Shown piece by piece: positions 3,598 to 43,972 of a stretch of DNA of 64,000 bases. The notes under the pieces are model-generated. The model saw only the letters and a list, made by a program, of their open reading frames with translations. It had not been told where the DNA came from and ran no database searches. The stretch is from a virus, in the IMG/VR virus record IMGVR_UViG_3300023184_003735, positions 1-64,000 of that record; one strand, given 5' to 3'. Numbering within the stretch: the first letter of the stretch is position 1; the number at the start of each line of letters is the position of its first letter. Position numbers and translations under genes: made by a program.

Positions 3598-3604
3598 AGT
3601 AGTT

Positions 3605-3612
3605 TATTTACC
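3605..3612 (-). promoter_or_regulatory. T4-type late promoter (GGTAAATA), leaderless spacing
   Basis: The minus strand reads GGTAAATA, 7 nt before the portal ATG at 3597, with no Shine-Dalgarno between. It is the same octamer as at 15198 and 43206 on the plus strand. The expected mRNA leader would be about 2 nt. Confidence 0.45.
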
Positions 3613-3616
3613 GTGT

Positions 3617-25181: not shown

Positions 25182-28100
25182 ATGGCAAAAACAACTAGAC
25201 AAACGGCGATATTTGGTGTAGAAGATTGGAAACAGATCTATCAAACCTATCGCGAAGCAGACTTTCAAAGTTATGACTTTGAAACTTTGCGCAAAAGTTT
25301 TGTTGATTATCTGCGTTTGTACTATCCAGAAACGTTCAATGATTATATTGAGTCGTCAGAATATATTGCTTTACTGGACGTTATTGCGTTCATGGGGCAA
25401 GCACTTGCATTCCGTACAGACTTAAACACCCGCGAAAACTACATGGACACCGCCGAACGTAGAGATTCGGTAGTACGTCTTGCCAACTTGGTCAGTTATA
25501 CAGCCAAACGCAACATTGCCGCACAAGGCCTACTCAAAGTATTTTCAATCAATACCACAGAAAATGTTGTGGATTACCAAGGCGTAGATCTTTCCAATGT
25601 TACTATTAACTGGGCAGACCAGACCAATCCAGACTGGCAAGAACAATTTACTGCAATTATTAACGCCAGCCTGGTTGACACACAAAAAATTGGCCGCCCG
25701 GGTAATAAACAAACTATACTAGGTGTGGTCACCAGTGAATACGGCATTAATTTGGTGCCTGGATACTTACCAGTAGTTCCTTATACTGCCACCGTGGATG
25801 GTGTGAGCATGCCGTTTGAGGCCATGACATCCACGTCAGTTGGCAAAACTTACTTGTACGAACCTCCTCCACAATCCAATGTGCCATTCAATGTATTATT
25901 CCGCAACGATAGTCTAGGGTTTCAGTCAGCCAATACTGGCTACTTCTTTATGTTCAAACAAGGTGTATTGCAAAATCAAGATTTCAACTTAGCCGAGAAA
26001 GTTAGTAACCGCACAGTAAACATCAACATTGAAGGTGTTAACAATGAAGATCGTTGGTTATTCCAACTAGACAATGTTGGTAATATCAATCGCGAATGGA
26101 CATATACAGAAAATATCTATGCAGCCGGTGCAGAACAAACAGCAACTGATCTACGACCTATCTATTCAGTTACCAGTAGAACCAATGACCAGATTACCAT
26201 GGTTTTTGGTGATGGTGTATTCTCAGAAATCCCTGTTGGTATATTCCGTGCTTATGTTCGTGCAAGTAACGGATTGCAATACATTATCAATCCCGAGGAA
26301 ATGCAGGCTGTAACTATTCCTATCAGTTATATTAGTCGCGCAGGCAATCTTGAAACACTAACATTTACTTGTGGCATCACACAACCAGTAAGCAACAGTC
26401 AGGCTCGTGAAACCATTGACGCTATCAAACAACGTGCTCCTGCACGTTATTACACACAAGATCGCATGGTCAATGGTGAAGATTATAATCTTTTCCCATA
26501 TACTCAATACAACTCAATTGTCAAGAGCAAGGCATTGAATCGTGCCAGCATTGGTACAAGCCGTTATCTTGATCTAGTTGACAACACAGGCAAATATTCC
26601 AGCACAAATACATTTGGCAGTGACGGTGGTTTGTGGGAACAAAACATTCTTCCCACCATCTTGTTCTCGTGGGCCAATCGCAATGAGATTGCTGACTTTG
26701 TTGCCAATCAAGTGCAACCAGCAATTGCACAATCAACCATGCGACAGTTTTATTACGAAAACTTTCCTAGAGTAAGTGCAGATAACTTGCCCACATATGG
26801 TGCTACCACTTGGGTTCCTGATGCAAGTTGGAATCAAAGTACCACATTGGCCAATGAAACCACAGGATATTTTAAAAATGGTGTATATTCAATTGCCTGG
26901 CCCACAGGGTCTCCAATTCCGGTAGGTACCACTACAACCACAGCATTCAAATATGTGGCTGTGGGCAGCCTAATTAAATTTGTTCCTCCCACAGGACAAT
27001 ATTTTGACAAAAACAATAAATTACAAACAGGTGTGCCAACGTCAGCAGATCAGCGTTTGGAAATTTGGGCCAGCCCTATCAGTATTGAAGGATCGGGATA
27101 CAACAACGGACTTGGTATTTTGCCTTCTGGTGCAGGCCCAGTGGCACTCAATAACTTTGTACCCACCGGTGCATTGGTTGACACAATCATTCCACTATTT
27201 GTTATTGACCTACCGGTGAGTGTGGAACAGAGCATAGCCGAACAAATTTTGTTAAATCGTAACTTTGGTTTAGGATATGACAATAACGGTGATATTACTG
27301 GTGCACCTTACTCGTGGTACCTAATCACCAGCACCAATCTAGCACAAGATAGTACCTGGAGTCAGCAGTATGCTGGTAACACATCAGGTGCCAACCTAGA
27401 TGCATCTTGGTTGATACAGTTTGTTGTGCAAAATCAAAATTACACAACCACCTTCCGTGGCCTGGCGTATTATTTTGGATCAGTGCTACAAACACGTTTC
27501 TTTTACTATGACGGTGGACAAATTTATGACAGCCGCACAGGCACAGTGATCAAAGACTTTATCAATGTGCTGGCAGTGAATACTAGACCTGATTCTACAG
27601 ATCATTTACCTGGCGATATTGTTATGACTATTACAGGACAACCTGTAGAGAGTGATGGATACGTTGACGACTTCCAGGTTTTGGTTGGTTATCGCGACAG
27701 CGATAATGATGGTGTACCAGATAACCCAGATTTCTTTAATGAAATCGTGGCACCCACAATCAACTCTACACAAAAATATGTTTACCTACAAAAAACAGTG
27801 GACTTTGATAATCTACAACGCTACCTGTTGGTTGAACCTGACGTGGTTGTAAGTGATTACGGCACCTATGATGAAATTGAATTGCAAAAAAGTGCATGGA
27901 CACCTGGACAGGTATTCTATGCTTATGAACAAAGTGCATTTTATCAACTATCTGTAAGTGTTACTGGTGCAAGAACTTTGATTGATGTCACTAACGAATG
28001 GATTGCACGTACTGGACGACAGGCATTGTATTATCAATATCGTCACAATGCACCATTGACCACACGTATTGATCCAGGTACAACCAATATCATTGACTTG

Positions 28101-28658
28101 TATGTTGTGACTTTGAGTTACTATACCGCGTATCAAAATTGGATTCGTGACACTACAGGAACTGTACCTGAACCAGATGTTCCCACAATTGACGAATTAT
28201 CAACCGAGTACCAAGGCTTGCAAAATTACAAAATGTTAAGTGACAATATTATTTTAAATTCAGTCATATTCAAACCTTTGTTTGGTGAAAAGGCCGCGCA
28301 AGAATTACGTGCTACAATCAAAGTAATTCGTGCGCAAGGATCTACAGCCAGCACAAGTGAAATCAAAAGCAGTGTGGTGTCCTCAATGAATACATATTTT
28401 TCAATTGACAAGTGGAATTTTGGTGATACATTTTACTTCTCAGAACTAGCGGCATACCTGCATAGAGAACTTGGCACTATTATTAGTTCAGTAGTGCTTG
28501 TACCACTTAACAGTCAAAAGTACTTTGGTGATTTGTATGAAATACGTTCAGCACCAAATGAAATATTTGTTAACGGTGCTACCATTAATAACATTGAAGT
28601 GATTGAAGCATTGACCAGTACCAACTTGCGTACCGCACCTGGCAGCGGAGTTATTTGA
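25182..28658 (+). CDS. 6: Baseplate wedge subunit gp6, enlarged
   Basis: The N-terminal 120 residues are typical of gp6: ETLRKSFVDYLRLYYPETFNDYIESSEYIALLDVIAFMGQALAFRTDLNTRENYMDTAERRDSV. The protein has 1,158 residues against 660 in T4 gp6; aquatic T4-like phages often have larger versions. The baseplate J-like region (about 330-450) includes VFGDGVFSEIPVGIFRAYVRASNGLQY and the C-terminal part has AQELRATIKVIRAQGSTAST and NFGDTFYFSELAAYLHRELG, the gp6 dimer region. gp6 dimers build the continuous inner ring of the baseplate. The gp7-like gene starts at its stop codon (TGATG). Confidence 0.9.
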   Translation: MAKTTRQTAIFGVEDWKQIYQTYREADFQSYDFETLRKSFVDYLRLYYPETFNDYIESSEYIALLDVIAFMGQALAFRTDLNTRENYMDTAERRDSVVRLANLVSYTAKRNIAAQGLLKVFSINTTENVVDYQGVDLSNVTINWADQTNPDWQEQFTAIINASLVDTQKIGRPGNKQTILGVVTSEYGINLVPGYLPVVPYTATVDGVSMPFEAMTSTSVGKTYLYEPPPQSNVPFNVLFRNDSLGFQSANTGYFFMFKQGVLQNQDFNLAEKVSNRTVNINIEGVNNEDRWLFQLDNVGNINREWTYTENIYAAGAEQTATDLRPIYSVTSRTNDQITMVFGDGVFSEIPVGIFRAYVRASNGLQYIINPEEMQAVTIPISYISRAGNLETLTFTCGITQPVSNSQARETIDAIKQRAPARYYTQDRMVNGEDYNLFPYTQYNSIVKSKALNRASIGTSRYLDLVDNTGKYSSTNTFGSDGGLWEQNILPTILFSWANRNEIADFVANQVQPAIAQSTMRQFYYENFPRVSADNLPTYGATTWVPDASWNQSTTLANETTGYFKNGVYSIAWPTGSPIPVGTTTTTAFKYVAVGSLIKFVPPTGQYFDKNNKLQTGVPTSADQRLEIWASPISIEGSGYNNGLGILPSGAGPVALNNFVPTGALVDTIIPLFVIDLPVSVEQSIAEQILLNRNFGLGYDNNGDITGAPYSWYLITSTNLAQDSTWSQQYAGNTSGANLDASWLIQFVVQNQNYTTTFRGLAYYFGSVLQTRFFYYDGGQIYDSRTGTVIKDFINVLAVNTRPDSTDHLPGDIVMTITGQPVESDGYVDDFQVLVGYRDSDNDGVPDNPDFFNEIVAPTINSTQKYVYLQKTVDFDNLQRYLLVEPDVVVSDYGTYDEIELQKSAWTPGQVFYAYEQSAFYQLSVSVTGARTLIDVTNEWIARTGRQALYYQYRHNAPLTTRIDPGTTNIIDLYVVTLSYYTAYQNWIRDTTGTVPEPDVPTIDELSTEYQGLQNYKMLSDNIILNSVIFKPLFGEKAAQELRATIKVIRAQGSTASTSEIKSSVVSSMNTYFSIDKWNFGDTFYFSELAAYLHRELGTIISSVVLVPLNSQKYFGDLYEIRSAPNEIFVNGATINNIEVIEALTSTNLRTAPGSGVI

Positions 28659-31600
28659 TGGCCAACACACGTAGCGTAGACTTTCTTCCTGAGATTTTTC
28701 AGACCGATGCCAACAAGCAATTTTTGGCTGCCACCCTTGATCAACTGATTCAAGAGCCTAACTTTAGAAAAACACAAGGATTTATTGGTCGTACAGTAGG
28801 ACCTGGCGTTAATCCTAACGACAAGTATGTGATTGAACCCACATCTACACGAGCAAATTATCAACTAGAACCGGGTGTGATCAGTTTGGTGCCAGACACA
28901 GACACTATTAAAAATGCCATCACCTATCCTGGCCTGAATGATGCTGTAGACCTCCAAGGTGGCGATGGCGGCCGACCTGATAGACTTTATTCAAGCGAAT
29001 ATTACACCTGGGATCCGTTTATTGACTTTGACACATTTATTAACTTTAGTCAGTACTACTGGGTACCTGGCGGCCCAGATGCAGTAGATGTGGCCTCTAC
29101 CGGAATTGCCACAACTGATAATTTTATAGTCACAACAAACAATAACGCTTATAATTTTTCAGGCGTTAACGGTAGCGATCCAGTTATTGAATTAGTACGT
29201 GGCGGCAGTTATACTTTTCAAGTGACTGACGAATTTTGGATCCAGTCGGCTCCGGGCATTTCAGGACAGATACCAGCAACTCCAAACATCAGCAGTAGAG
29301 ATGTTTACGGTGTGTCCAACAACGGCGAAACCTCTGGCACTGTAATATTCAATGCACCACTTAAAGATGCACAAAGTTTTTATTACAACTTAACCAGTAT
29401 TGGTACCATCGATCTAGTGACTGAATTAGCATACGATGATATCAATGGTCAACCCTTGCTTGATTTTATTGTGGCAACTGGCGGCATTGATGGTACAACC
29501 AATTTAAACAATCGCACACTGGTTTTTATCGATAACCCTGATCTCACACAAAAATATCAAATTACCTACACCACGGTTGATGATGTAATTTATTTGCAAG
29601 TGTCATTGTTGGCCACTATCAATAGTTTAGAAAAGTGGATGACCAGTTATGGAACCGTTTACAGTAACACTCAATGGTACAAAGATCCAGCCGGAGTTAT
29701 TCGCAGTATCCCGTTGCTGAGTGCAGTTCAAGATACATTATATTATCAATCAGGTACAAATTCTGAAATTTTTGGACGTATTCTTTTGGTCGAACCTGGC
29801 AACAGTAGTATACTTGATGTTGACACTATCATTGGCCGTGAAACATATACCAGTCCCAATGGGGTTACATTCACCAACGGACTCAAAGTGAGATTTACTG
29901 GTGATGTAATCCCTGCAAGATACAAATCAGGAACAAGCAGTTTTCAATGTACCGCTACAGAAGCAGGCACAAACTATATCACTTATTATGATGCTGTACA
30001 ATTGTACGTGGGTCAAGCGGTTGTATTTTTAACACCAACCTTGGGTGGACTCGAAGCCGGCACAACCTATTACGTGAGATCAATTGCAGCCAATGGCATT
30101 AAGTTTACAGTGAGTACAGTCCCCAATGGAACCTCAGTAATATTACAAAACGGCACAGGTACAATGAATTCAATTGCAATCAGCAACCATGAATACTATG
30201 TGAGTGGTGTTGGCTCTGCCATTGAATTGTTGCCGGTTGAAGATTTTGTTATTCCAGAAACTTATGTAACTGATTACAATGATAGCACTATTGCTATAGA
30301 ACCGACAGATTTAGATTACCTAACAATTAGTCGCGCCAGTAAAGATTTAAATGCTTGGACTAGAAGTAATCGTTGGTTTCATGTCAGTGTACTAAATGCC
30401 ACCGCAGAATACAATAATACCAGCATAGTACTTGACAACAACTTCCGTGCCAAAAGACCAATTATACAATTCCGTCCAGGTACCCGTTTGTGGAACATGG
30501 GCACTCGAGGCAAAACACCCGTAGACATTATTGACTTCTCAGAAACTGACGCACTTTCAAATGTAGAAGGTTCTACTGGTTATACTACTGATGGGTATAC
30601 CTTGGTCGAAGGATCACGAGTTATATTTGCCGCAGACATAGACTTGGATGTACGTGACAAAATTTATGTAGTAAGTTTTGCGACACCAGATACTGTACCA
30701 GACCCAGATCTAATCCCTCAGCCGATTATTGTATTAACTGAAGCCATAGATGGAGCAGTTCAATTAGATGAATGCACTGTTTGTGTTTACGGTAATACTT
30801 ACGCCGGAAAAACATTTTGGTTTGATGGTACTGCTTGGATTGAAGCACAACAAAAAACTGCGGTACAACAAGCACCGTTATTCAATGTATATGATGTAGA
30901 TGGTGTGAGTTTTGGCAACCGAGTCAAATATCAATCGAGTGATTTCACCGGATCAAAACTATTCAGTTATGCAGTGGGGGACACCACAATTCTTGACCCA
31001 GTGTTGCAATTCCCATTACAATATTTGAACATCAACAACGTTGGTGATATTGTTTTTGATAACAACTTATATGTTGACACCTTTACCTACACAATTGATA
31101 ACGTTAGTACCGTTACTCCTATAAGTTCGGGAGCCGCCAGAGAGTATGCGACTCGCACTGAGTACAACAAACTAATTGGTTGGCAAACTGCTATAGTTGA
31201 ACAGCAAATTTATCAACAATTTAAATTTACGTATACAACACAAACTCTTAAACTTGATATTGCGGTAACTCCACAAACATCAATTATGTTACCTGTGATA
31301 AAAATTTATGTCGGTAGTGTGTTTATTGAACCTAGTATGTATACCTATACTGTTGGTACAGACAGTACAATTATTGCATTGACTGATACTTATTTGCCCA
31401 CAGACGTTATTGAGGTACTGGCACTAAGTGAGCAGACCAGTAACGTGGGATTTTATCAAGTGCCCAATAACTTGCAAAGTAATCCTCTTAATGCCAATAG
31501 TCCTGCATTTACATTAGGCACCATACGCACTCATTACGAAAGCATCTGTGAAAATTTATTAAGTTTAACTGGGCCAATCAACGGGGCAAACAACAGTAGA

Positions 31601-34600
31601 GACCTTGGAAATATTATTCCTTACGGTTTAGAAATTTTACAACAAAGCAGTCCGTTGACACTGGCTGGCTACTTCATGCGCAGTCCCAGTTATAATATAT
31701 TTGCATCATTGCAATACAACAGTCGTGAATATATCAAATTCAAAGCACAGATGCTTGATGCGGTGCTTACTCAAAACAATATTGCATTCAAAACCACAGC
31801 CACTATCCTTGATCAGGCAATTGCAGATATTACTCTAGGAAAATTAGACACTCAGCCATTTTATTGGAGTGATATGATTCCACAGGGTATTACCTCTTAT
31901 AGTAATACCTATACTGTGGGATTGACTACTACTAGTACATTTGATACTGTGCAAGTTTACAACTATACTTCGGCAAATTATCTTGGACTTTGTGTGTATC
32001 TAAACAATGTTATTTTAACTCGTGATCGAGATTATGTTGTGGCCACCAACGGACCTAGACTTACAATCGGTGTCGCACTTGCTGTTGGTGACACAGTTAC
32101 TATTAATGAGTACAGTACCACCTATGGCAGTTTTGTGCCTAACACTCCAAGTAAAATGGGCTTGTATCCCAAGTGGGAACCCGAAATTACCACACTTGTA
32201 ACCAGTAATGGTACAGGTGAATTTATTATTGGACATGACGGTAGTGAAACTCCGGTATTTGGAGACATACGAGATCAAGTGCTGTTGGAGTTTGAAACCA
32301 GAATCTACAGCAACATCAAACAAGATGGCAATCCAGTACCTCTCACAATTGAAAATGTATTACCTGGCCAGTTCCGTAGCACTGAATACAGTTTTGAAGA
32401 AATTAACAATATTTTTGGTACAGATTTATTGAGTTATTGCGGTTGGAACAAATTAGATTATAAATCTCAAACGTTCACCGCCACCAATGAATTCACATGG
32501 AACTACAGTAATACTACTAATAAACTCAATAATGAAAATTTACTAGGTGCCTGGCGTGGTATCTATCGCTATTTCTATGACACACAACAGCCTAGTTACA
32601 CTCCCTGGGAAATGCTAGGATTAACCACAGAACCTGTCTGGTGGGAAAGTCGTTACGGCCCAGCACCATACACCGCAGACAACTTGGTTCTGTGGGATGA
32701 TTTGGCTGCTGGTCTTGTGGCCGATCCTGCGGCACCATACTATAAACCTAAATATGCACGACCTGGTCTAACATCAGTTATTCCCACAGGAACTGAAGGC
32801 GAACTATTAAGTCCACAAGACAGTGTAGTAGGCGGTGTGCCGCTCAATCAAAATATTGTCTCCAGATATCAAAAAAGTTGGGCCATTGGCGATGGCGGCC
32901 CAGTTGAAGCATCTTGGTGGAATAGTTCTGGATACCCATTCTCAGTAATGCATGTGTTGGCTGTTACTCGTCCAGCAAAGTTCTTTTCTTTGTTTGCTGA
33001 TAGAGATCTGTACAAGTTTGATACAGACTACAACCAATATTTGTACAATGGTCGCTATAGATTAGATGCCAATGGTATTGAAGTATACGGCAATGATGTC
33101 AGTAAAGCCAGCTACATCAACTGGATTGTGGACTACAATAGGCAGACTGGAATTAATTCAACAGATCTGTTGACCGCTGATCTCAAGGCCTTGGATGTTA
33201 GACTATGTTATCGAATGGCCAGTTATTCGGATAAACAGTATATAAAATTAATTACTGAAAAGTCTAGTCCTAATAGCACTAACACAACGTTAACGATTCC
33301 CGATGAAAGTTACAACATCTTGTTGTATAAAAACCAGCCGTTTGATCAAATCCGATACAGTAGTGTGGCAGTGCAAAAAGTTGACGGCGGCTACGCAGTA
33401 TTTGGGTATGGAACAACACAATCTTATTTTGAAATACTACAAAGTCAATCTGTGGGCAAACTACAAGAATACAGTGCAGGTGGGATCACAGTACGTGTGC
33501 CAACTTTTTATTCCGACAATGTGACACAAGTTCCATACGGATTTGTTTTTGTGAACGAAACCGCAGTGAGCGATTTCTTGCTGAGTTATGGCAAACTATT
33601 AGAAAAGCAAGGATTGACATTTACTGATCGAGTGAATGGGTATACCCTAGATTGGTCAAGAATGGTTACTGAGTTTTTGTATTGGAGTCAGCAAGGCTGG
33701 AATACAAATGCCATTATCAACTTGAATCCCTTGGCTGGTGGCCTCACAGTTACCCGCCCTGGGGCAGTAGTTGATAGTATTGTAACTGAAACCAGTGAAA
33801 ACTTATTACTGGATCAAAATTCAAATGAAATCCCCACACGCTCATTAAATGTTGTTCGATTAGGCAACACGTTCACCATACAACCTCTAACTACACAAAG
33901 TATAAGTTATATTAATTTGAGATTTACCAACTACGAACACATGATAGTGTTAGACAATCAAAGTGTGTTTGGAGATTTAATATACAACCCAGTAACAGGT
34001 GCAAGACAAAGTAGATTAAATCTAGTGGCCGTAACTACTAGTGACTGGAACGGAAGTGTAGATACTCCTGGTTTTATTTTAAATCAAGACAATGTGCAGG
34101 AGTGGACTGGCCTAAAGACTTACTCCAAAGGTGAAATTGTTAAGTACAAAAATGTATACTGGTCTGCATTGACCATTGTACAACCCAGCATCAAATTTGA
34201 TTTTAATGTTTGGGCACAGAGTGATTACACTCAACTTGAATTAGGTTTACTACCAAACCTGGCCAATAAAGCTGACCAATTAGCCAACAGTTATAATATC
34301 AATGCCGCTAATATTGAAACTGATAATGATTTATTATCGTACGGCTTGATTGGTTTTAAACCTCGACAATATCTGGCCGCATTGAATCTTGATGATGTTA
34401 GCCAAGTCAATGTGTATCGTCAATTCCTAGGAACCAAAGGTACCATCTTGGCAGCCGAATTGTTCAAAGCCGCCAACCTAGGCAAAGAAGCTGCTGACTA
34501 TACCATCTATGAAAACTGGGCAGTACAACGTGCAGTATACGGCGCCAATGCCAATCGCAGTTTCTTTGAATTGAGATTGAATCGTGCATTACTGGATAGT

Positions 34601-37600
34601 AATCCTAGTTTGGTACAGGTTGTCGTGCCACAACAATCAAGCGAAGCAGACCAAACTATTTTTCTAACAGATGTGTGGCGGTCAAGTTATAAACTTACCA
34701 GCACCGCGATTCTTCCTACCACAACTGAATTGCCCACTGACGTTGGGTTGCCTTCGGCAGGGTATGTAAGTCTCAATGATACCGACATCACAGTGTTTGA
34801 TATCACAAACACAGCCAGTCTGGCAGCCAACATAGATTCAATTGAAGTAGGCACAAGTATCTGGGTGGCCAAGATCAACGATTATGACTGGGGAATTTAT
34901 CGTGCTCAAGCAGTACCCGGACAGATACAACACGTTTGCGACAACTTGAATGGTACAAGCCGTGTGATTTTTAATGATCAGCACGGCTTAGCAGTTGGCG
35001 ATAAACTGATTATCAAATTCTTTGACAGTGAAATCAATGGCGTGTACCAGGTACTCAGTGTACCGAGCCTTGATACTGTGAACATTGCATTTGCGTTTAC
35101 TAGCAATCGTTCAGTGGCAAATGGAACAGGCATTGGCTTTACATTGCAAACCATGCGAGTTGCACAAGCCAGCGATGTTGATAACTTACCATATGCTTTG
35201 AATATTTTACCTGGTGCCAAAGTTTGGGTCGACGACAATGGCGAAGGTTTGTGGGAAGTACTGCAAAAGAACAACGTGTTCTCAAGTATTATTGCACTAA
35301 GTCCAGTATTACTTGACGCAAGTGAGCAGTATGGTGCTAGTGTAACACAAGCCAGAAACAAAATTGCCGCGCTGGTAGGTAGTCCACGCTATGGTTTTAA
35401 TAGTGGTGTTGCCAAAGGTGCAGTGTATGTTTATGTAAAGAGTTATAGTGATCAATACACACCAGTGAGTCCTTTGGGCACCGGTGATGCAATTCTTACG
35501 CTAGATGTTGCGGGTGTACGTGGTTATGGTAATGCTGTGGACTTTGGTAATCAATCATGGGCAGTGGCCGGAGCCAGTGCCAGTTTAGGTCCAGGCAGTG
35601 AACCCGACAACGGCTATGCCTGTGTGATCTATCGTGATCCAGTGTTGGGCGTGCCTGGATCTATCCCATACGGCCAGTGGCAGTTGCTCACACAGCCTGG
35701 CACAACTACATCAACTACTCCGGGTGCTGGAGAATTTGGTTACAGTGTGGCCATGAGTCTAGACGAGCGTTGGATGTACATTGGAGCACCCGGTTTAAAT
35801 AGTGTACATGCCTATGGTTATGTTGATTGGCAAGATCAATTTGTCAAAGTATTAGCTGATGGTACAACCAAATCTTTTGCAATCAACAACGCTATACAAA
35901 TCAACAACAAATATCAACTCAAGGTTACATTGAACGGTCAGGTGCAAACAGTTGATGTTGATTATACAATTGACAACAATTTTAACCTAGTTACTTTAAC
36001 TAATAACCCAGGGGTGGCTACAGCAGGAAGTTTTGTTTCAGGACAAACATACACTATTCTTAGCGTAGGAACCACTAACTTTGTTGCCATTGGTGCCAGT
36101 TCAAACACAGTGGGAGTTGAATTTATTGCTACCGGAGCAGGATCAGGAACTGGTACTGCATTAGCACCAACTCAAATTGAGTTTGCACGTTACAACAGTT
36201 TTCAAATTCCTTATACTGCAACCACTTACAATCTCGACGATGCCGTCAACGCCGACGGTCGCAGAGTTGGATTATTTACAGCCACAAATATATATTCGTT
36301 CAGCATCAAGGTCAATGAAGACTTGTTACGCCCTAATATTGACTATACATTTGCCGGTACAACCGTAACTTTTACTGGATCATACGTTGCGGCTGACATT
36401 ATTGTGGTCAATGCTAAAGGATATTTTGAATATGTAGACACAATTGATTCCAGCATGGTCACAGGTGGACTAACTGCTGGAGACAGATTTGGACAAGCAG
36501 TTTCATGTACCACAGATGGCCGACAAGTTTTAATTGGCACACCATATAAATCCATAGTTAATGCTATCAGTAGCGCCAGTGCATCCGGAGTTGCGGTAGC
36601 AGGAACCGCATCATATTCTAATCTTTATCAATATAGTACCAGTGGATCTGGGTATGGTGCAATATTTAATGTAACACGTACCAATCAAACATATTCAATT
36701 AGTCTGATCGAAGGCGGTCAAGATTATAATATTAATGACACTATTACTATCTTAGGAACTCTATTAGGTGGTACTACTGGTAATAACTTAACAATTACTG
36801 TTGGTACTGTAAAAACTTTTACAGAAGCTGGGTCAGTGTATGTGTTTGATCGCAATGTACAAAAATTCATCTATGGTACAGATCCTTCCAGCGTGAGTTT
36901 TACAGTGCTAGGCGGAGCACCAACAGCACCAGTAAGCGTGATTGTTAACAATCAATTCTACATCAATCAAACCAACAGTGTGATCAATAACCCTGACTCA
37001 TTCACTGTGAGCGGTGATGTGGTTACCATACTTGGCGACTTGCAAATTGGTGATGTGATTGAAATTGAAACAAATCAATTCCAGCAAGTACAAGAAGTTG
37101 ATCAACACGTGATTGCAGAGTTTTCAAACTTTGGACAATCTGTAGATATCTGTGCCAACAATTGTAGTCTGTATGTGGGCGAACCACAGAGCAGTCAGCA
37201 AATATTCAAAGGCGGTGTGGTTGAACGTTTTGTAAACCAAAGTCGCATCTATGGCACAATCACTGCCACAGTGGCCAACCCTACACTCACTGCTGGTAAC
37301 ACAATCAGAATTAACAATATAGATGTTGAAGTCCCAGTTACATATGTAAATGCAGCCGGCCAGACTGTAGCCGGTAATAATGTTAATGGTCTAGCATGGG
37401 CAATCAATAACACAGTGCCAAACGTGTTGGCCACAGTCAGCACCACTGGATATCTCACAATCAGTGTCAAGAATTCTGCGGCAGCCGCACCGTTCAACAA
37501 GGTGCAAGTGGCGCCAGGCTCAGTGGGCACAACATTTGCTGATCTAGGATTTGAAACTTTTGCCTGGACACAAACAATTACCAGCCCATATCCTGTGCAG

Positions 37601-40600
37601 TATGCAGGGTTCGGTAGTGCTATCAGCATCAATGACTCAGCAGTGAACTTGGTGGTTGGTGCACCACAAGGTACAATTTATCTTGAAACTGTGTTTGATG
37701 ATGGCACCACAATATTTGACGCTGGTAGCACAGTATTCTTCTCGGTAATTGTGCAAAGTGGAGCAATTTACACATTTGACTATTTGCCAAGCAACACACT
37801 GACCATAACCAACCCTGGTAAATTTGTGTTTGGACAGCAAGTCAACAACAGTCAAATTGGACCATATGATACATTTGGTGCCGCAGTAAACTATACTTCG
37901 GGTGTGTTGATGATCGGTGCTCCCAAGAACGATGTTGGCGATAGTGATGCAAATTTTGGAGCTGTGTTTGTGTTTGAAAATCCTTCAGACGCACCTGCCT
38001 GGTCCGTGGCACAAATACAACAACCCACAGTCGACATTCGATTGTTAAATAGTGTATTCTTGTATGATAGAATAACAAGTGCTCGAACCGAGTTTTTAGA
38101 TTTTATTAACCCATTACAAGGTAAGATACTGGGTGCGGCACGTGCCAACATTGATTACATTGGCTCGATAGATCCTGCCGCATACAACACAGGACCAGTT
38201 AATATTCAAGGTACCACGTGGTTTGCAGATCACGTGGGAGAAATTTGGTGGGACATTAGCACAGTGAGATTTATTGACCCTAATCAAGATTCAATTGTGT
38301 ACGCCAGCCGACGTTGGGCACAGATATTCCCAGGCAGCGAAATTGATGTATATCAGTGGATACAAAGCACAACACCCCCTGCATCGTATACTGGTGAAGG
38401 TATACCATTAAACTCTGCATCTTATACGGTTAACACAAATCTTTCACAAGATGGAACATTTGCTACCTATTATTATTTCTGGGTTCGTGGCATCACAGTG
38501 ACAGCAACTCAATTGGGCAAAACGTTGCCAGCCATCACAGTTGCATCATATATTGCCGATGCCAAGGCTAGCGGCATAGCCTATCTAGCACCAATCAATG
38601 CCAGTACAATTGCATTATACAACAGTGCTGACTATATTTCTGCTAGTGATACTGTTATCAGTATTGAGTACGACCGCGAATACACCAACGATAATGTACA
38701 CGTTGAATATGAGTTGATTCCACAAGATCGTGCTGATGGATTCTTGAGCGACGGTCTATACCGTAAGTTACAGGATAGTTTCTGCGGAGTAGATACATTT
38801 GGTAACAAAGTGCCAGACCCTAATCTTGGTCCTGCAGAACGTTATGGAGTACAATTCCGTCCACGCCAATCAATGTTTGTAGATCGTTTTGCGGCACTAA
38901 AAAATTATTTAAAACGTGCAAACGTTGTGTTGGCACAATATCCCATTAGCGAAAGCAGAAGTTTCAATTTGCTCAACAGCAGTGAGCCCATTCCGCCACA
39001 AACCGAAATTGTGAACAACGTCACTGTAACCAACTGGAATCTACAAGTGGCCAATTTGGAAGTACTAGGATTTCAAACACCATTCTGGTCTAATATCAGT
39101 GGATCAATACCTTTAGGTTACAAATATCTTGTGACCACTGACAGTAGTCAACGCGGCTTATGGACAATTTATACTGTTCAAGAAAGCGACACTCAAGCCA
39201 ACACAAGAGTGCTAAAACTAACACGAGTACAAGGTTACAATACCCCCGATTATTGGAGTTATATCAATTGGTACCGCCCGGGATACAATTCTAGCACTAA
39301 AATCGTAGTCGAAGTGTCCACATACTCAGCATTGGCCACTCTTACTGTGCCAGTTGGTAGTAGCGTTAAAGTTACTGCTAATGCCCAAGGCAAATTTGAA
39401 ATATATTTAAAAACTAACCTAGGTTGGGAACGGGTGGCACTGCAAGATGGTACCATTGAGTTTTCTGCAGAACTTTGGGATTATGCTGTGGGTCGCTTTG
39501 GATTTGATGTTGAAGTTTATGATGCACAATACTTTGATCAAGAACCAGTAACAGAAACCCGCAAAATCATCCAAGCCATCAATGAAGAATTGTTAATAGA
39601 TGACCTAGCAATTCAACGCAACAAGGCCTTGGTGCTGATGTTTAACTTTGTGTTGAGCGAATTTTCTGCACCTGAATGGTTGGTCAAGACCAGTTTAATT
39701 GACGTGGATCACAACATCCGTCAATTGATTCCTTATCAAAATTACACAATCGACAATCAAGAGTTTGTTAGTGATTACATTCAAGAAGTCAAACCTTATC
39801 ACGTGAGTATTCGAGAATTTAACTTAAAGTACACTGGATTTGATGAATTCTTTGGAGACTTGACCGACTTTGACGTACCTGCTTATTACAATACGTCTTT
39901 GGAAATACCTAAATTCACAAGTCCAATCTTGTTGCCATATGACCATGGCACTGCGTTTAATTCTGGAACCAATACGCAAAGTGATTTACCAGCAACTAGC
40001 CCTGTGTGGAGTACATGGCCATACAATCAATGGTACAGTAATTATTTGTTGGTGCTTGACAGTGTGGAAATTATTGACGGTGGATCAGCATATACTGAAC
40101 CACCAGTGGTTATAATTACAGGTGATGCATTGATACCAGCAGAGGCCACTGCGGTAATCAGCAGTCTAGGCCGAGTAGTAGCCGTAAATGTTACCAGTTC
40201 AGGATCAGGATACAATCAAACTCCCACTATTACATTTGATGGTGGTAATGGTGTTGCGGCCCGTGCCTACGCTAGAATGACCAACAATCTTGTGCGCAGT
40301 TTCCGCACAGTAATCAAGTATGACCGTTTTCAATATTTTAGCGATGTGTTGACTTGGAGTCCAAATGGAGTTTACTACTCGGACATGCTGGTCCGTTATG
40401 ATAATCGTGTGTGGATCGCTACTCCTGCTGACTCTTCAGGTGCACCAATTGTAGGGCCGACATTTAATCTTGAAGATTGGACTGTGGTACCAGCCAAGGA
40501 TTTAACCGGCGTCAATCGTACCATGGGCTATTACGTTCCTGGAGTTAATCAACCTGGGCTTGAGTTACCATTGCTGATCGATGGCGTTGATTATCCAGGT

Positions 40601-43201
40601 GTACAGGTCTACGGTGATTACTTCCTGAGAAATCCACTATCCATAGATGCCAACTATTCTAGTGAATTTACAGATGTCACACTAGGTGATCTGCCCACTG
40701 ATATCAATGTTGATGGCGGTGAATTTATCGGCTTGTACGAAGGTCATGCTCCAGAAGAATTAATCAACGGTGCAGAATTTGACACTCTTGACTTCCGTGT
40801 TTACACACGTCCGGGTGCAGATTGGAACAGAGATGGACATGGATTCCAATGGAGCAGTGCTCGTTATACATATGATCCTGTGATCGAAACAGCATACAGT
40901 TGGGCTGGAATAACAAACCATCCAGTACAAGTATTGGTTAGCAACATCACTACTGGCACTGACCTTGCACTTGATGTTGATTACACCGTTGACTGGGTTA
41001 ATCAAACAGTTTCTTTGCTGACAGCAACATCAGGCAATCAATTCCAAATTAATGTGTTTGAACTAGGTGGCGGCAGTCAATTGTACCGTGCCAATTACAT
41101 TGGCGGAGATATTGGTGAGACTGTGGTGGTTCCAGTTGGATCAACAGAAATTACCAGCATTGCTGTGTTTGTAAATGGCGCCAATGTTGATAGCGTGACC
41201 TGGACCCCATATGTCGACAGCGTCAATTGGAATATACTAGATACCTACAGCAAGTTAGATATTGTCAATAACGCAGGCAATTACTACAGAGCATTACAAG
41301 ATGTACCAGTTGGCACAAGCATTGCCAACGTATTGTATTGGTTTGAATTTGTCCCAACTGCTGAAAGTTTGGTGGATTTTGGTACTGACTACGGTGCCAC
41401 AGACGGCATTGCCATGGTAGTATTTGGAACAACCACCATAGACGCCGGTTATTTTGTAATTGGTAAATCATACACAATTACCACAGTTGGTACAACCAAT
41501 TGGACTGCTATAGGTGCCGCATCTAATACACCGGGTGTTAGTTTTACAGCCACCGGAATTGGCTCGGGCACTGGTCAAGCAAGTACTGCTTACAGTTGGA
41601 GTACTCCGCAGGTGCAATATCAAGTGGCTGATAATAATCTTGTGACTAACAAGATTGTCTATTTGACCAATAGTGTTCAAGGCACCAATCCAGTCAACGC
41701 AGTAGTCACCCTTGATGGATTCAGATTACAACCTCCTGCGGGAATTGAATGGATTGGCGATGACTCCAGTGTAAGTTTTGGGCTACCACAACGCCTGGGA
41801 GCGACGTTCGTACAATCTTCAATCAATGCACCCACCGATATTAGTGTATGGATTGACAACATTCTGCAGATACAAAGTGTTGGCCCAGTTACAGGTAATT
41901 ATAGCGTGACTGCGTGGACCGGTAGCAACACTCCGGGACGTCAAGTGGTGTTTACAACCCCACCACCAAGCGGCGCAAGAATTTTAATTACTGTAAGTAC
42001 TTTGGCCGATTATGCAATCGTCGCCAACCAGTTACAAATCTCAGCGTCAATATCATTAGGACAAACAGTTGCAGTAACCACATGGAATGATACTGCACAG
42101 TTATGGCCGTTGACCTTGGTATTCAAAGGCCCAGTCATAGACAGCATAACAGTCTCAGAAGGCTACGACGAAACCAACTATAGTCCAGATACAATAAATA
42201 ACGCTCCTGGGTCGTTTGACTATTCTGCAGGAAACACAATATACAAAAACAATTTCTATCTAGAAAGAAGTTTGAATAATGCCAGCAGACTTTGGGTAAC
42301 ACTGAATACAGGATCGGGTGGAAAAAGACTATTTGAAGGTATAGATTATACTGTGAGTGGTGATTACTTGATATTGGCCAGCGGCGTAATTGGTGTCAGC
42401 GATGTCTTGGTGGTTGAAGCATTTACCAATAGCATTGTGCCCGAAGCAATGGCCTTCCGCATATTCCAAGACATGCGTGGAGTACAGGCCACCTATAGAA
42501 TTACAGAAGCCACAACCACAACACTGGCACAAGATTTATCAAGCACAGCCGACATTGCTTATGTTACCAATATACAAGCATTGAGCGAGCCGGATCTAGC
42601 AACCGGTATTTTTGGTGTAATCACAATCGATGGTGAACGTATCATGTATCGTGAACGCGATATTATATCTAGTAGCATTTTGGGACTCATGCGCGGCACA
42701 GCAGGTACAGGTGCCTCAGATCATACTACTGGCACCGATGTATATGACATGGGTCGCGGCAACTTATTGCCTGAACAGTTCCAGAACTACATTGTGAGCG
42801 ACTCGACTCTTGGAGATGATAGCACAACGGTGTTCTACGCACCCAGTATCAACGTTGCTAATTTTGAAGATTCTGCAGTTGAAGTAAATGCAATTGAAGT
42901 TTACGTAGGCGGAATACGCCAATACGCTGAAAGTAATGACGGTTCAACACTGATTACAACGCCAAGCCAATACAGATGGAATTGCACCAATGGGGGCGGG
43001 GACAATACTCCACTTACAATTGAGTTTGTTGTAGACTACAACGTTTCCCCACCATTACTACCGCCAGCGTCAGGAGTAGAAGTTACAATCCTGGTGCGAC
43101 AGGGAGTGACTTGGTATGCACCCGGAGACGGTACTGCAAGTGATGGAATCGCACTACAAGATACCGAAACGCAAGCCGCAAGGTTCTTGCGTGGGTCATA
43201 A
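28658..43201 (+). CDS. 7: Giant baseplate wedge protein, gp7-like, 4,847 residues
   Basis: The gene starts at the ATG inside the gp6 stop and runs 14.5 kb without interruption. The N-terminus (VDFLPEIFQTDANKQFLAATLDQLIQ) and blocks such as PWEMLGLTTEPVWWESRYGPAPYTADNLVLWDDL (about residues 1320) are like the gp7-position proteins of cyanophages; T4 gp7 has 1,032 residues. It is a beta-rich mosaic. Six FG-GAP-like modules lie at about residues 2289-3110 (for example FGYSVAMSLDERWMYIGAP). A module with TILSVGTTNFVAIGASS near 2465 recurs near 4270. A Gly-rich pair SAYTEPPVVIITG / SGYNQTPTITFDGG lies near 3810-3850. The last 250 residues contain GVITIDGERIMYRERD. It probably forms wedge and peripheral baseplate arms, possibly with host-binding parts. 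The gp7 call rests mainly on position. Confidence 0.7.
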   Translation: MANTRSVDFLPEIFQTDANKQFLAATLDQLIQEPNFRKTQGFIGRTVGPGVNPNDKYVIEPTSTRANYQLEPGVISLVPDTDTIKNAITYPGLNDAVDLQGGDGGRPDRLYSSEYYTWDPFIDFDTFINFSQYYWVPGGPDAVDVASTGIATTDNFIVTTNNNAYNFSGVNGSDPVIELVRGGSYTFQVTDEFWIQSAPGISGQIPATPNISSRDVYGVSNNGETSGTVIFNAPLKDAQSFYYNLTSIGTIDLVTELAYDDINGQPLLDFIVATGGIDGTTNLNNRTLVFIDNPDLTQKYQITYTTVDDVIYLQVSLLATINSLEKWMTSYGTVYSNTQWYKDPAGVIRSIPLLSAVQDTLYYQSGTNSEIFGRILLVEPGNSSILDVDTIIGRETYTSPNGVTFTNGLKVRFTGDVIPARYKSGTSSFQCTATEAGTNYITYYDAVQLYVGQAVVFLTPTLGGLEAGTTYYVRSIAANGIKFTVSTVPNGTSVILQNGTGTMNSIAISNHEYYVSGVGSAIELLPVEDFVIPETYVTDYNDSTIAIEPTDLDYLTISRASKDLNAWTRSNRWFHVSVLNATAEYNNTSIVLDNNFRAKRPIIQFRPGTRLWNMGTRGKTPVDIIDFSETDALSNVEGSTGYTTDGYTLVEGSRVIFAADIDLDVRDKIYVVSFATPDTVPDPDLIPQPIIVLTEAIDGAVQLDECTVCVYGNTYAGKTFWFDGTAWIEAQQKTAVQQAPLFNVYDVDGVSFGNRVKYQSSDFTGSKLFSYAVGDTTILDPVLQFPLQYLNINNVGDIVFDNNLYVDTFTYTIDNVSTVTPISSGAAREYATRTEYNKLIGWQTAIVEQQIYQQFKFTYTTQTLKLDIAVTPQTSIMLPVIKIYVGSVFIEPSMYTYTVGTDSTIIALTDTYLPTDVIEVLALSEQTSNVGFYQVPNNLQSNPLNANSPAFTLGTIRTHYESICENLLSLTGPINGANNSRDLGNIIPYGLEILQQSSPLTLAGYFMRSPSYNIFASLQYNSREYIKFKAQMLDAVLTQNNIAFKTTATILDQAIADITLGKLDTQPFYWSDMIPQGITSYSNTYTVGLTTTSTFDTVQVYNYTSANYLGLCVYLNNVILTRDRDYVVATNGPRLTIGVALAVGDTVTINEYSTTYGSFVPNTPSKMGLYPKWEPEITTLVTSNGTGEFIIGHDGSETPVFGDIRDQVLLEFETRIYSNIKQDGNPVPLTIENVLPGQFRSTEYSFEEINNIFGTDLLSYCGWNKLDYKSQTFTATNEFTWNYSNTTNKLNNENLLGAWRGIYRYFYDTQQPSYTPWEMLGLTTEPVWWESRYGPAPYTADNLVLWDDLAAGLVADPAAPYYKPKYARPGLTSVIPTGTEGELLSPQDSVVGGVPLNQNIVSRYQKSWAIGDGGPVEASWWNSSGYPFSVMHVLAVTRPAKFFSLFADRDLYKFDTDYNQYLYNGRYRLDANGIEVYGNDVSKASYINWIVDYNRQTGINSTDLLTADLKALDVRLCYRMASYSDKQYIKLITEKSSPNSTNTTLTIPDESYNILLYKNQPFDQIRYSSVAVQKVDGGYAVFGYGTTQSYFEILQSQSVGKLQEYSAGGITVRVPTFYSDNVTQVPYGFVFVNETAVSDFLLSYGKLLEKQGLTFTDRVNGYTLDWSRMVTEFLYWSQQGWNTNAIINLNPLAGGLTVTRPGAVVDSIVTETSENLLLDQNSNEIPTRSLNVVRLGNTFTIQPLTTQSISYINLRFTNYEHMIVLDNQSVFGDLIYNPVTGARQSRLNLVAVTTSDWNGSVDTPGFILNQDNVQEWTGLKTYSKGEIVKYKNVYWSALTIVQPSIKFDFNVWAQSDYTQLELGLLPNLANKADQLANSYNINAANIETDNDLLSYGLIGFKPRQYLAALNLDDVSQVNVYRQFLGTKGTILAAELFKAANLGKEAADYTIYENWAVQRAVYGANANRSFFELRLNRALLDSNPSLVQVVVPQQSSEADQTIFLTDVWRSSYKLTSTAILPTTTELPTDVGLPSAGYVSLNDTDITVFDITNTASLAANIDSIEVGTSIWVAKINDYDWGIYRAQAVPGQIQHVCDNLNGTSRVIFNDQHGLAVGDKLIIKFFDSEINGVYQVLSVPSLDTVNIAFAFTSNRSVANGTGIGFTLQTMRVAQASDVDNLPYALNILPGAKVWVDDNGEGLWEVLQKNNVFSSIIALSPVLLDASEQYGASVTQARNKIAALVGSPRYGFNSGVAKGAVYVYVKSYSDQYTPVSPLGTGDAILTLDVAGVRGYGNAVDFGNQSWAVAGASASLGPGSEPDNGYACVIYRDPVLGVPGSIPYGQWQLLTQPGTTTSTTPGAGEFGYSVAMSLDERWMYIGAPGLNSVHAYGYVDWQDQFVKVLADGTTKSFAINNAIQINNKYQLKVTLNGQVQTVDVDYTIDNNFNLVTLTNNPGVATAGSFVSGQTYTILSVGTTNFVAIGASSNTVGVEFIATGAGSGTGTALAPTQIEFARYNSFQIPYTATTYNLDDAVNADGRRVGLFTATNIYSFSIKVNEDLLRPNIDYTFAGTTVTFTGSYVAADIIVVNAKGYFEYVDTIDSSMVTGGLTAGDRFGQAVSCTTDGRQVLIGTPYKSIVNAISSASASGVAVAGTASYSNLYQYSTSGSGYGAIFNVTRTNQTYSISLIEGGQDYNINDTITILGTLLGGTTGNNLTITVGTVKTFTEAGSVYVFDRNVQKFIYGTDPSSVSFTVLGGAPTAPVSVIVNNQFYINQTNSVINNPDSFTVSGDVVTILGDLQIGDVIEIETNQFQQVQEVDQHVIAEFSNFGQSVDICANNCSLYVGEPQSSQQIFKGGVVERFVNQSRIYGTITATVANPTLTAGNTIRINNIDVEVPVTYVNAAGQTVAGNNVNGLAWAINNTVPNVLATVSTTGYLTISVKNSAAAAPFNKVQVAPGSVGTTFADLGFETFAWTQTITSPYPVQYAGFGSAISINDSAVNLVVGAPQGTIYLETVFDDGTTIFDAGSTVFFSVIVQSGAIYTFDYLPSNTLTITNPGKFVFGQQVNNSQIGPYDTFGAAVNYTSGVLMIGAPKNDVGDSDANFGAVFVFENPSDAPAWSVAQIQQPTVDIRLLNSVFLYDRITSARTEFLDFINPLQGKILGAARANIDYIGSIDPAAYNTGPVNIQGTTWFADHVGEIWWDISTVRFIDPNQDSIVYASRRWAQIFPGSEIDVYQWIQSTTPPASYTGEGIPLNSASYTVNTNLSQDGTFATYYYFWVRGITVTATQLGKTLPAITVASYIADAKASGIAYLAPINASTIALYNSADYISASDTVISIEYDREYTNDNVHVEYELIPQDRADGFLSDGLYRKLQDSFCGVDTFGNKVPDPNLGPAERYGVQFRPRQSMFVDRFAALKNYLKRANVVLAQYPISESRSFNLLNSSEPIPPQTEIVNNVTVTNWNLQVANLEVLGFQTPFWSNISGSIPLGYKYLVTTDSSQRGLWTIYTVQESDTQANTRVLKLTRVQGYNTPDYWSYINWYRPGYNSSTKIVVEVSTYSALATLTVPVGSSVKVTANAQGKFEIYLKTNLGWERVALQDGTIEFSAELWDYAVGRFGFDVEVYDAQYFDQEPVTETRKIIQAINEELLIDDLAIQRNKALVLMFNFVLSEFSAPEWLVKTSLIDVDHNIRQLIPYQNYTIDNQEFVSDYIQEVKPYHVSIREFNLKYTGFDEFFGDLTDFDVPAYYNTSLEIPKFTSPILLPYDHGTAFNSGTNTQSDLPATSPVWSTWPYNQWYSNYLLVLDSVEIIDGGSAYTEPPVVIITGDALIPAEATAVISSLGRVVAVNVTSSGSGYNQTPTITFDGGNGVAARAYARMTNNLVRSFRTVIKYDRFQYFSDVLTWSPNGVYYSDMLVRYDNRVWIATPADSSGAPIVGPTFNLEDWTVVPAKDLTGVNRTMGYYVPGVNQPGLELPLLIDGVDYPGVQVYGDYFLRNPLSIDANYSSEFTDVTLGDLPTDINVDGGEFIGLYEGHAPEELINGAEFDTLDFRVYTRPGADWNRDGHGFQWSSARYTYDPVIETAYSWAGITNHPVQVLVSNITTGTDLALDVDYTVDWVNQTVSLLTATSGNQFQINVFELGGGSQLYRANYIGGDIGETVVVPVGSTEITSIAVFVNGANVDSVTWTPYVDSVNWNILDTYSKLDIVNNAGNYYRALQDVPVGTSIANVLYWFEFVPTAESLVDFGTDYGATDGIAMVVFGTTTIDAGYFVIGKSYTITTVGTTNWTAIGAASNTPGVSFTATGIGSGTGQASTAYSWSTPQVQYQVADNNLVTNKIVYLTNSVQGTNPVNAVVTLDGFRLQPPAGIEWIGDDSSVSFGLPQRLGATFVQSSINAPTDISVWIDNILQIQSVGPVTGNYSVTAWTGSNTPGRQVVFTTPPPSGARILITVSTLADYAIVANQLQISASISLGQTVAVTTWNDTAQLWPLTLVFKGPVIDSITVSEGYDETNYSPDTINNAPGSFDYSAGNTIYKNNFYLERSLNNASRLWVTLNTGSGGKRLFEGIDYTVSGDYLILASGVIGVSDVLVVEAFTNSIVPEAMAFRIFQDMRGVQATYRITEATTTTLAQDLSSTADIAYVTNIQALSEPDLATGIFGVITIDGERIMYRERDIISSSILGLMRGTAGTGASDHTTGTDVYDMGRGNLLPEQFQNYIVSDSTLGDDSTTVFYAPSINVANFEDSAVEVNAIEVYVGGIRQYAESNDGSTLITTPSQYRWNCTNGGGDNTPLTIEFVVDYNVSPPLLPPASGVEVTILVRQGVTWYAPGDGTASDGIALQDTETQAARFLRGS

Positions 43202-43220: not shown

Positions 43221-43370
43221 ATGTCAAATACACAGCAAAATTACACAGTTGAGCCCAAAAAAGAGCAAAAGCCCAGCAAACCCAACGAGACCGGCACCGT
43301 TAATGTGCAAGGGCATTTTAGAGTGTTTGATCCAAAAACACAAAAGACCTATGTGGAGGGACGAGCATGA
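43221..43370 (+). CDS. Small unknown protein, 49 residues
   Basis: A 50-codon frame starts MSNTQQNYTVEPKKEQK and ends FRVFDPKTQKTYVEGRA. The first half is charged and disordered, while the second half has a compact VQGHFRVFDPKTQKTYVEG pattern that looks like a beta hairpin. Its stop overlaps the ATG of the next gene (ATGA), and a late-promoter match precedes it. The tight fit between two structural genes and the overlap support that it is real. Function unknown, possibly a small virion or assembly factor. Confidence 0.65.
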   Translation: MSNTQQNYTVEPKKEQKPSKPNETGTVNVQGHFRVFDPKTQKTYVEGRA

Positions 43371-43972
43371 TAACCCCGGGACTGGCAAAAATTACTGGGC
43401 ATGTCAAAATTCATGATCCCGCAAATGGCGAAATATTCTACAACGATCACAATGCTATTCATTACGAAAACATCAGTGTTGCAATGGCTCAAAGCCTAGC
43501 AGATCGTAACTTGGGTTACATTTATCAAATGGCATTTGGCAATGGCGGTAGTAGTGTAGACCCCACAGGCGTTATCACATATTTGCCCCCAAATACCACA
43601 GGACAAAGTGCATCACTTTATAATCAAACCTATCAAAAAGTAGTTGACGATAATTCAGCCGCTGATACAGATCCAGAAAATAACAAAATGACTGTGTTGC
43701 ACACAGCAGGAAACACCTACACTGATATTTTGGTAACTTGTTTGTTAGACTACGGTGAGCCACCTCAACAGCAGGCATTTGATAACTCAACCAATTTTAA
43801 CGGTGAGTTTGTGTTTGATGAACTGGGTCTTAAAACATGGAATGGCTCTGTTACTGACCTACGCTTGATTACTCACGTGATTTTTCACCCAGTTCAAAAG
43901 AGTTTGAATCGTCAAATTCAGATCGATTATACACTTCGCATACAGACTTTAAGCAACATAAATGCTGTATAA
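43367..43972 (+). CDS. Virion structural protein after gp7, 201 residues
   Basis: The protein starts ITPGLAKITGHVKIHDPANGEIFYNDHNAIHYENIS and ends FHPVQKSLNRQIQIDYTLRIQTLSN. It is beta-rich, with a motif YQMAFGNGGSSVDPTGVITYLPP (about residues 49-71). It resembles small baseplate/fibre-associated proteins of aquatic T4-like phages, and may link the wedge to a fibre. It is not like T4 gp8 or gp9 as far as I can tell. The gene overlaps the 49-residue frame by 4 nt. The downstream late promoter overlaps its last codons. Confidence 0.6.
   Translation: MITPGLAKITGHVKIHDPANGEIFYNDHNAIHYENISVAMAQSLADRNLGYIYQMAFGNGGSSVDPTGVITYLPPNTTGQSASLYNQTYQKVVDDNSAADTDPENNKMTVLHTAGNTYTDILVTCLLDYGEPPQQQAFDNSTNFNGEFVFDELGLKTWNGSVTDLRLITHVIFHPVQKSLNRQIQIDYTLRIQTLSNINAV

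What the first reader, a model, noticed from the sequence alone, without database searches (positions are those of the whole stretch)
28658..43201. A 4,847-residue gp7-position baseplate protein
A single reading frame of 14.5 kb replaces a gene that in T4 codes for about 1,030 residues. It takes up about one quarter of the window and has no frameshift. Such a giant wedge protein implies an unusually large or decorated baseplate. It may be a fusion of gp7 with several fibre or adhesin genes.
Basis: partly seen in the sequence, partly recalled or inferred. Interest (0 to 1): 0.6.

Follow-up and report, generated by a model that had tools for sequence, protein, structure and literature searches.

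The report
Giant baseplate-wedge protein of jumbo phages
This single 14.5-kb gene encodes a 530-kDa protein next to a phage's baseplate genes; it belongs to a structural-protein family already known from jumbo phages, and what is new is that in this uncultured group it carries an inserted seven-bladed propeller of the kind found in animal integrins.

Summary
Window 28658-43201 (+) is one uninterrupted ATG frame of 4,847 codons (about 530 kDa, pI 4.3), under strong purifying selection, whose start overlaps the stop of gp6 (TGATG). Thirty-nine IMG/VR relatives carry it as one complete frame (4,581-6,718 residues), so it is not an assembly error. It is not unprecedented. It belongs to phrog_10938, found downstream of gp6 in jumbo T4-like phages (RaK2, CBB, PA5oct, Atu_ph07; 3.3-4.4 thousand residues) and detected in virions of CBB and PA5oct. 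A gene annotated gp7 in cyanophage P-SSM2 is even longer (5,195 residues). No sequence or fold homology to T4 gp7, and no sequence homology to gp8-gp11, was detected, so it occupies the gp7 position without showing gp7 membership, and the fusion idea is not supported. Its length comes from insertions into a conserved core of about 2,370 residues: small beta-modules that come and go between relatives, and seven FG-GAP repeats (residues 2225-3110), a propeller absent from the compact isolates. Most likely it is the gp7-equivalent subunit of each baseplate wedge, carrying a decorated arm used in surface contact or fibre docking (inferred). It is a new variant of a known kind.

The parts
17989..18288 (+). 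gp53-like baseplate wedge subunit
   Evidence: phrog_7145 E=1e-21
21591..23111 (+). gp5-like baseplate hub protein
   Evidence: phrog_13211 E=2e-39
24756..25133 (+). gp25-like wedge subunit
   Evidence: phrog_43 E=3e-9, PF04965 E=9e-5, below its cut-off
25182..28658 (+). gp6-like wedge subunit, 1,158 aa
   Evidence: phrog_10646 E=3e-278, phrog_219 E=2e-21
28658..43201 (+). giant wedge protein, 4,847 aa, one frame, start overlapping the gp6 stop
28658..28987 (+). residues 1-110: conserved helical N-terminus (FLPEIFQTDANKQFLAATLDQL), candidate core-bundle segment
   Evidence: median identity 0.84 among relatives; 0.99 occupancy in isolates over 1-100; helices but low pLDDT
28988..30247 (+). residues 111-530: inserted beta modules, mostly absent from compact isolates
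   Evidence: isolate occupancy 0.07-0.12 over 201-500; length varies 380-584
29930..30187 (+). about residues 425-510: E1_FCCH-like barrel module, missing in 7 of 31 relatives (approximate borders)
   Evidence: block 401-600 shrinks from 200 to 114-130 residues in 7 relatives; weak fold matches to ubiquitin-activating E1 enzymes, E=0.004-0.015, prob 0.82-1.00; E1_FCCH E=1e-3 in the C-terminal region of relative L070
30248..35047 (+). residues 531-2130: conserved core, first part
   Evidence: phrog_10938 main match 917-1810
35330..37987 (+). residues 2225-3110: seven FG-GAP repeats (starts 2225, 2290, 2360, 2611, 2825, 2985, 3073), integrin-like beta-propeller with modules inserted between blades
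   Evidence: PF14312 E=1e-9, 38.9 bits over cut-off 23, all 23 relatives match
36023..36160 (+). 46-aa mobile module, copy 1 (residues 2456-2501)
   Evidence: 70% identical to copy 2; present or absent between relatives
37988..39967 (+). residues 3111-3770: conserved core, second part; helix-turn-helix 3630-3669 and EVKPY motif 3710-3714
39968..43198 (+). residues 3771-4847: variable C-terminal arm of beta modules
   Evidence: length 685-2953 among relatives
41444..41581 (+). 46-aa mobile module, copy 2 (residues 4263-4308)
43367..43972 (+). 201-aa protein that follows the giant in nearly all relatives; unknown function, likely partner
   Evidence: phrog_11259 E=2e-69; 59-95% identity in the IMG/VR relatives that reach it
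43994..45985 (+). 663-aa structural protein next in line; at the same position PA5oct has a protein described by its annotators as T4-like gp10

Best explanation
The gene encodes the gp7-equivalent, third subunit of each baseplate wedge of an uncultured jumbo-like myovirus. It is probably made right after gp6 by translational coupling, and its conserved core (residues 1-110, 531-2130, 3111-3770) joins two gp6 copies to form the wedge scaffold. The insertions (beta modules at 111-530, the seven-bladed FG-GAP propeller at 2225-3110, and the C-terminal arm 3771-4847) would hang off the baseplate rim. There they would dock fibres or touch the cell surface, so that contact is passed through the wedge to the sheath. 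Shown: one frame, family membership, synteny, purifying selection, virion presence of two homologues, seven FG-GAP repeats, module gain and loss. Inferred: wedge location, gp7 role, coupling, peripheral exposure, binding role.
For: The gene directly follows gp6 in the window, in nearly all IMG/VR relatives and in the annotated jumbo isolates; the same order as T4 gp6-gp7 and P-SSM2 gp6-gp7. The start/stop overlap with gp6 resembles T4, where gp7 starts within the last four bases of gp6. The homologues CBB_236 (21 peptides; PMC5259590) and PA5oct gp355 are in virions. No gene matching the T4 gp7 profile was found in the complete RaK2, CBB, PA5oct, Atu_ph07 or SCTP-2 genomes, although contractile baseplates share a (gp6)2-gp7 module (XM1: PMC10457771). 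gp7 is known to be very divergent (PMC3037559), and in XM1 it carries the tail spikes. Core conserved, insertions variable in length. Seven FG-GAP repeats.
Against: No significant sequence similarity to gp7: Pfam Gp7 domains and phrog_964 absent, hhalign E 0.3-0.5 at the N-terminus while controls score 5e-6 to 1e-10. No significant fold match to any baseplate protein in the PDB. The putative core-bundle segments are the low-confidence parts of both models. PHROGs files the family under head and packaging. Adjacent genes need not encode adjacent proteins.
Confidence: 0.6

Rival explanations
1. It is a peripheral baseplate or fibre-network protein (adhesin, fibre anchor or tail decoration) that happens to follow gp6; the gp7 slot is filled by something else, too divergent to see.
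For: No detectable gp7 homology; beta-module composition and an FG-GAP propeller are adhesin-like; viral fold library hits beyond its own family include fibre proteins; CBB carries unusual hair-like tail appendages (PMC5259590).
Against: The core is well conserved and strictly syntenic with gp6; the most conserved segment is a helical N-terminus, unlike a fibre; RaK2 long fibres are encoded elsewhere (PMC10253068).
Confidence: 0.27
2. It is a fusion of gp7 with neighbouring T4-type genes (gp8, gp9, gp10) or with fibre genes.
For: Recognisable gp8 and gp9/gp10 genes are missing from the window record and from the complete jumbo genomes tested, and a free-standing FG-GAP protein of 409 aa exists in Atu_ph07.
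Against: Profile-profile comparison of every 700-residue slice with gp6, gp8, gp9, gp10 and gp11 gives nothing; no relative was found with the parts as separate genes; the length is added by insertions inside the core, not only at its end.
Confidence: 0.1
3. The frame is an assembly or sequencing artefact joining several genes.
For: None found; one contig (L024) has the frame interrupted.
Against: Thirty-nine full-length IMG/VR relatives and eight isolate genomes carry one frame; purifying selection along its length.
Confidence: 0.01

Closest known systems
phrog_10938 virion structural protein (RaK2 ORF070, CBB gp236, PA5oct gp355, Atu_ph07 gp180)
   Same: Same family over the conserved core (E=5e-298), same place after gp6, detected in CBB and PA5oct virions.
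   Different: Isolates are shorter (3,326-4,449 aa). The stretch holding the propeller is only 82-85 residues in RaK2 and PA5oct, and the blade pattern is absent from the matching stretch of all eight isolates examined.
Cyanophage P-SSM2 gp7 (PSSM2_111, 5,195 aa; phrog_2885)
   Same: Giant single-frame protein directly after gp25-gp6; annotated gp7; detectable link to T4 gp7.
   Different: No similarity to the window protein beyond one weak 109-residue match (E=0.004); a recognisable gp8 gene follows.
T4 gp7 (1,032 aa; phrog_964; Pfam Gp7_helical, Gp7_5th, Gp7_6th)
   Same: Position after gp6 and overlapping start.
   Different: No sequence or fold similarity detected; 4.7 times shorter.
FG-GAP beta-propeller (PF14312; integrin alpha)
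   Same: Seven repeats in one block; the best though weak PDB sequence hits are integrin alpha-IIb (E=0.09).
   Different: Embedded in a phage structural protein, with other modules inserted between blades.

Membership tests
phrog_10938 (jumbo-phage giant structural protein) | Profile match over the conserved core | tested here: met
   E=4.6e-298, three stretches
phrog_10938 (jumbo-phage giant structural protein) | Gene directly downstream of gp6 in the baseplate cluster | tested here: met
phrog_10938 (jumbo-phage giant structural protein) | Present in the virion | not testable with these tools
   Shown for homologues only (CBB_236 in PMC5259590; PA5oct gp355)
T4 gp7 family | Pfam Gp7 domains or phrog_964 match | tested here: not met
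   T4 gp7 itself scores with all three Gp7 domains
T4 gp7 family | Profile similarity to the gp7 core (T4 644-897) | tested here: not met
   E 0.3-0.5 at the N-terminus against 5e-6 to 1e-10 for true gp7 controls
T4 gp7 family | gp7 fold in the solved-structure library | tested here: inconclusive
   No match, but only residues 1-1150 and 3134-3904 were modelled, with low confidence in the helical parts
T4 gp7 family | Position gp53-gp5-gp25-gp6-gp7 and start overlapping gp6 | tested here: met
(gp6)2-gp7 wedge heterotrimer | One copy binding two gp6 through a helical core bundle | not testable with these tools
   needs structure or biochemistry
FG-GAP seven-bladed propeller | Seven FG-GAP repeats in tandem | tested here: met
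   Seven motif matches, none elsewhere in the protein; leave-one-out supports five blades at E<=0.004, one at 0.026, one not
FG-GAP seven-bladed propeller | Predicted propeller fold | not tested

The most novel reading that the evidence does not exclude
In this uncultured jumbo-phage group the wedge scaffold protein is itself a receptor-binding protein: an integrin-like FG-GAP propeller and exchangeable beta cassettes built into the gp7-equivalent subunit make contact with the host and signal directly to the sheath, without separate fibres in between.
Probability: 0.15. Interest if true: 0.55.

Novelty: new variant of a known kind. Interest (0 to 1): 0.32.

Why it matters
It links a giant jumbo-phage structural protein, filed by PHROGs under head and packaging, to the gp7 slot of the baseplate wedge, a testable assignment. 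It also shows how baseplate proteins grow: a conserved core takes in small folded cassettes, including what looks like a whole propeller, between related phages.

Tried and rejected
Local profile matches of the giant to 'head closure Hc2' and 'hub and tail lysozyme' fall on residues 3798-3883, a GSGY..PP.V.I repeat module, and were taken as a shared promiscuous module, not as function. Profile comparison with T4 gp6, gp7, gp8, gp9, gp10, gp11 and P-SSM2 proteins gave nothing convincing. Weak alignments of the N-terminus to T4 and P-SSM2 gp7 fall on gp7 core segments, but E is 0.3-0.5, so they are not used as evidence. Fold searches gave copper-oxidase-like beta-barrel hits without meaning for function or nothing. 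A search for the EVKPY motif in T4 and P-SSM2 proteins found none. PA5oct relatives in IMG/VR: none found by pattern scan. Literature: no held paper has the terms FG-GAP, phage, baseplate and tail together.

Full report
What was checked. The reported frame is real: 28658-43201 (+), ATG to stop, 4,847 residues with no internal stop, a calculated 529.8 kDa and pI 4.3. The other five frames of that stretch hold 209-433 stops each, and comparisons with six relatives put most differences at third codon positions, so the whole frame is under purifying selection. The start codon overlaps the gp6 stop (TGATG), much as T4 gp7 starts within the last four bases of gp6. The window is part of a 124,183-base IMG/VR virus record.

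Not an assembly error. A scan of viral contigs gave 68 loci. Of these, 40 hold the gene as one complete frame; one (L024, 3,367 residues) is cut short and the other 39 span 4,581-6,718 residues. Some are near-identical copies, so the number of independent lineages is smaller. Isolated jumbo phages have one frame too: PA5oct gp355 3,857, Atu_ph07 gp180 4,449, CBB gp236 3,340, RaK2 ORF070 3,326, SCTP-2 3,807, Vibrio phage 2.275.O 3,771, XaC1 3,332 and PBECO4 3,333 residues.

What family it is. The protein matches phrog_10938 at E=4.6e-298. tblastn with the first third finds it in 57 phage records, all below 60% identity, led by PA5oct-like, Atu_ph07, SCTP-2 and RaK2/PBECO4/GAP32-type phages (similar sets for the other two thirds). 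In virions, the homologues CBB_236 (21 peptides, 7.7% coverage; PMC5259590) and PA5oct gp355 (ESI-MS/MS note in the record) are detected. The gene order gp53 - hub - gp25 - gp6 - giant is the same in the window and, with small insertions, in PA5oct, CBB, XaC1 and PBECO4. In nearly all IMG/VR relatives a conserved 201-residue gene and a roughly 660-residue gene follow; no copy of either was found beside the giant in CBB, RaK2, XaC1 and PBECO4.

Is it gp7? By position, yes; by descent, not shown. T4 gp7 domains are absent from the giant, and phrog_964 matches neither the window record nor the complete RaK2, CBB, PA5oct, Atu_ph07 and SCTP-2 genomes, while the same model finds P-SSM2 gp7 and a Desulfovibrio phage gp7. 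hhalign links T4 gp7 to P-SSM2 gp7 (E=1.5e-10) but gives E=0.3 and 0.5 for the giant's N-terminus against P-SSM2 and T4 gp7, and nothing for any 700-residue slice against gp6, gp7, gp8, gp9, gp10 or gp11. Foldseek of two AlphaFold2 models (residues 1-1150, mean pLDDT 71.6; residues 3134-3904, mean 68.6) found no baseplate protein with a significant score in the PDB. The likely interface segments are the low-confidence parts, so the fold test is inconclusive. Published work says gp7 is very divergent (PMC3037559), that XM1 has a wedge module homologous to the T4 (gp6)2-gp7 module, and that the XM1 gp7 orthologue, 242 residues long, carries the tail spikes (PMC10457771). With no other candidate seen in the complete genomes, the giant is the most likely occupant of the gp7 slot (inference, 0.6).

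Giant proteins here are not new. P-SSM2 has an annotated gp7 of 5,195 residues in the same place, and PHROGs holds related profiles of 3,231, 4,179 and 6,136 positions that match it.

Where the length comes from. Against eight isolates the conserved parts are about residues 1-110, 531-2130 and 3111-3770, roughly 2,370 residues. The rest is insertion: 111-530, 2131-3110 and 3771-4847, which vary much more in length among relatives (380-584, 784-1,050 and 685-2,953 residues) than, for example, the second core part (610-704). Insertions come in discrete steps, such as about 113, 44, 85 or 54 residues at fixed sites.

The propeller. Residues 2225-3110 hold seven FG-GAP motifs, none elsewhere in the protein. 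FG-GAP_2 scores above its cut-off when this stretch is searched alone (38.9 against 23 bits), and all 23 sequences aligned match it at E<=0.01. In a leave-one-out test five repeats are found at E<=0.004, one at 0.026 and one (residue 2290) not. Seven is the canonical blade number of integrin-type propellers (general knowledge). The stretch is reduced to 82-85 residues in RaK2 and PA5oct; Atu_ph07 has about 960 residues there without the motif, and a separate 409-residue FG-GAP protein elsewhere. In the phage collection the propeller stretch matches only two records, both through the small module described next. A marine relative in a Neomarinimicrobiota MAG (L169) has the core but not the motif pattern. 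The propeller fold itself was not modelled.

Small mobile modules. A 46-residue module occurs twice (2456-2501 and 4263-4308; 70% identical protein, 63% identical DNA) and is present or absent at several sites between relatives. It also occurs in a cyanophage S-TIM54 structural protein and in two other phage proteins. A barrel module at about 425-510 resembles the E1 FCCH half-domain and is missing in seven of 31 relatives.

Mechanism proposed. The conserved core binds gp6 in the wedge; the inserted propeller and cassettes project and serve fibre docking or surface contact; contact is passed through the wedge to the sheath, as proposed for XM1. The first step rests on position and elimination, the others on analogy.

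Verdict. Real, well conserved and correctly placed, but a member of a known jumbo-phage family whose size has a longer named precedent. The propeller-bearing form is a new variant.

Noticed in passing
window 51382-58160: A run of at least four radical-SAM domain proteins (51382, 53804, 55122, 56949) downstream of the tail genes; unusual density for a phage.
   Followed up: no
window 36023-36160 and 41444-41581: A 46-residue module (YTI..vGTTnf..IGA..NtvGv.F.ATG.GsGTG) inserted in frame at different sites among relatives and also in other phage proteins.
   Followed up: partly
window 16568-16736: 42-bp tandem repeats coding a repeated peptide inside the structural gene 15224-17989.
   Followed up: no
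window 21591-23111: The hub protein (506 aa) shows no lysozyme domain in Pfam, unlike the 880-900-aa hub of RaK2-type phages.
   Followed up: no
window 3617-6346 (-): 909-aa protein whose stretch 768-838 matches endolysin families.
   Followed up: no
L074:5633-14923: Salicola phage SCTP-2 has a second giant gene (3,096 aa) at the gp6 position, without detectable similarity to the window's gp6.
   Followed up: no
L003 record NC_042013.1, 243045-243821: Atu_ph07 encodes a free-standing 409-aa FG-GAP protein far from the baseplate genes.
   Followed up: no
L070:9977-30154: The longest relative, 6,718 residues; the aligned block 3801-4000 alone is 1,545 residues long.
   Followed up: no
window 28658-43201 (PHROGs family phrog_10938): PHROGs files the family as head and packaging; its position after gp6 speaks for a tail/baseplate role, so the category may be wrong.
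   Followed up: partly
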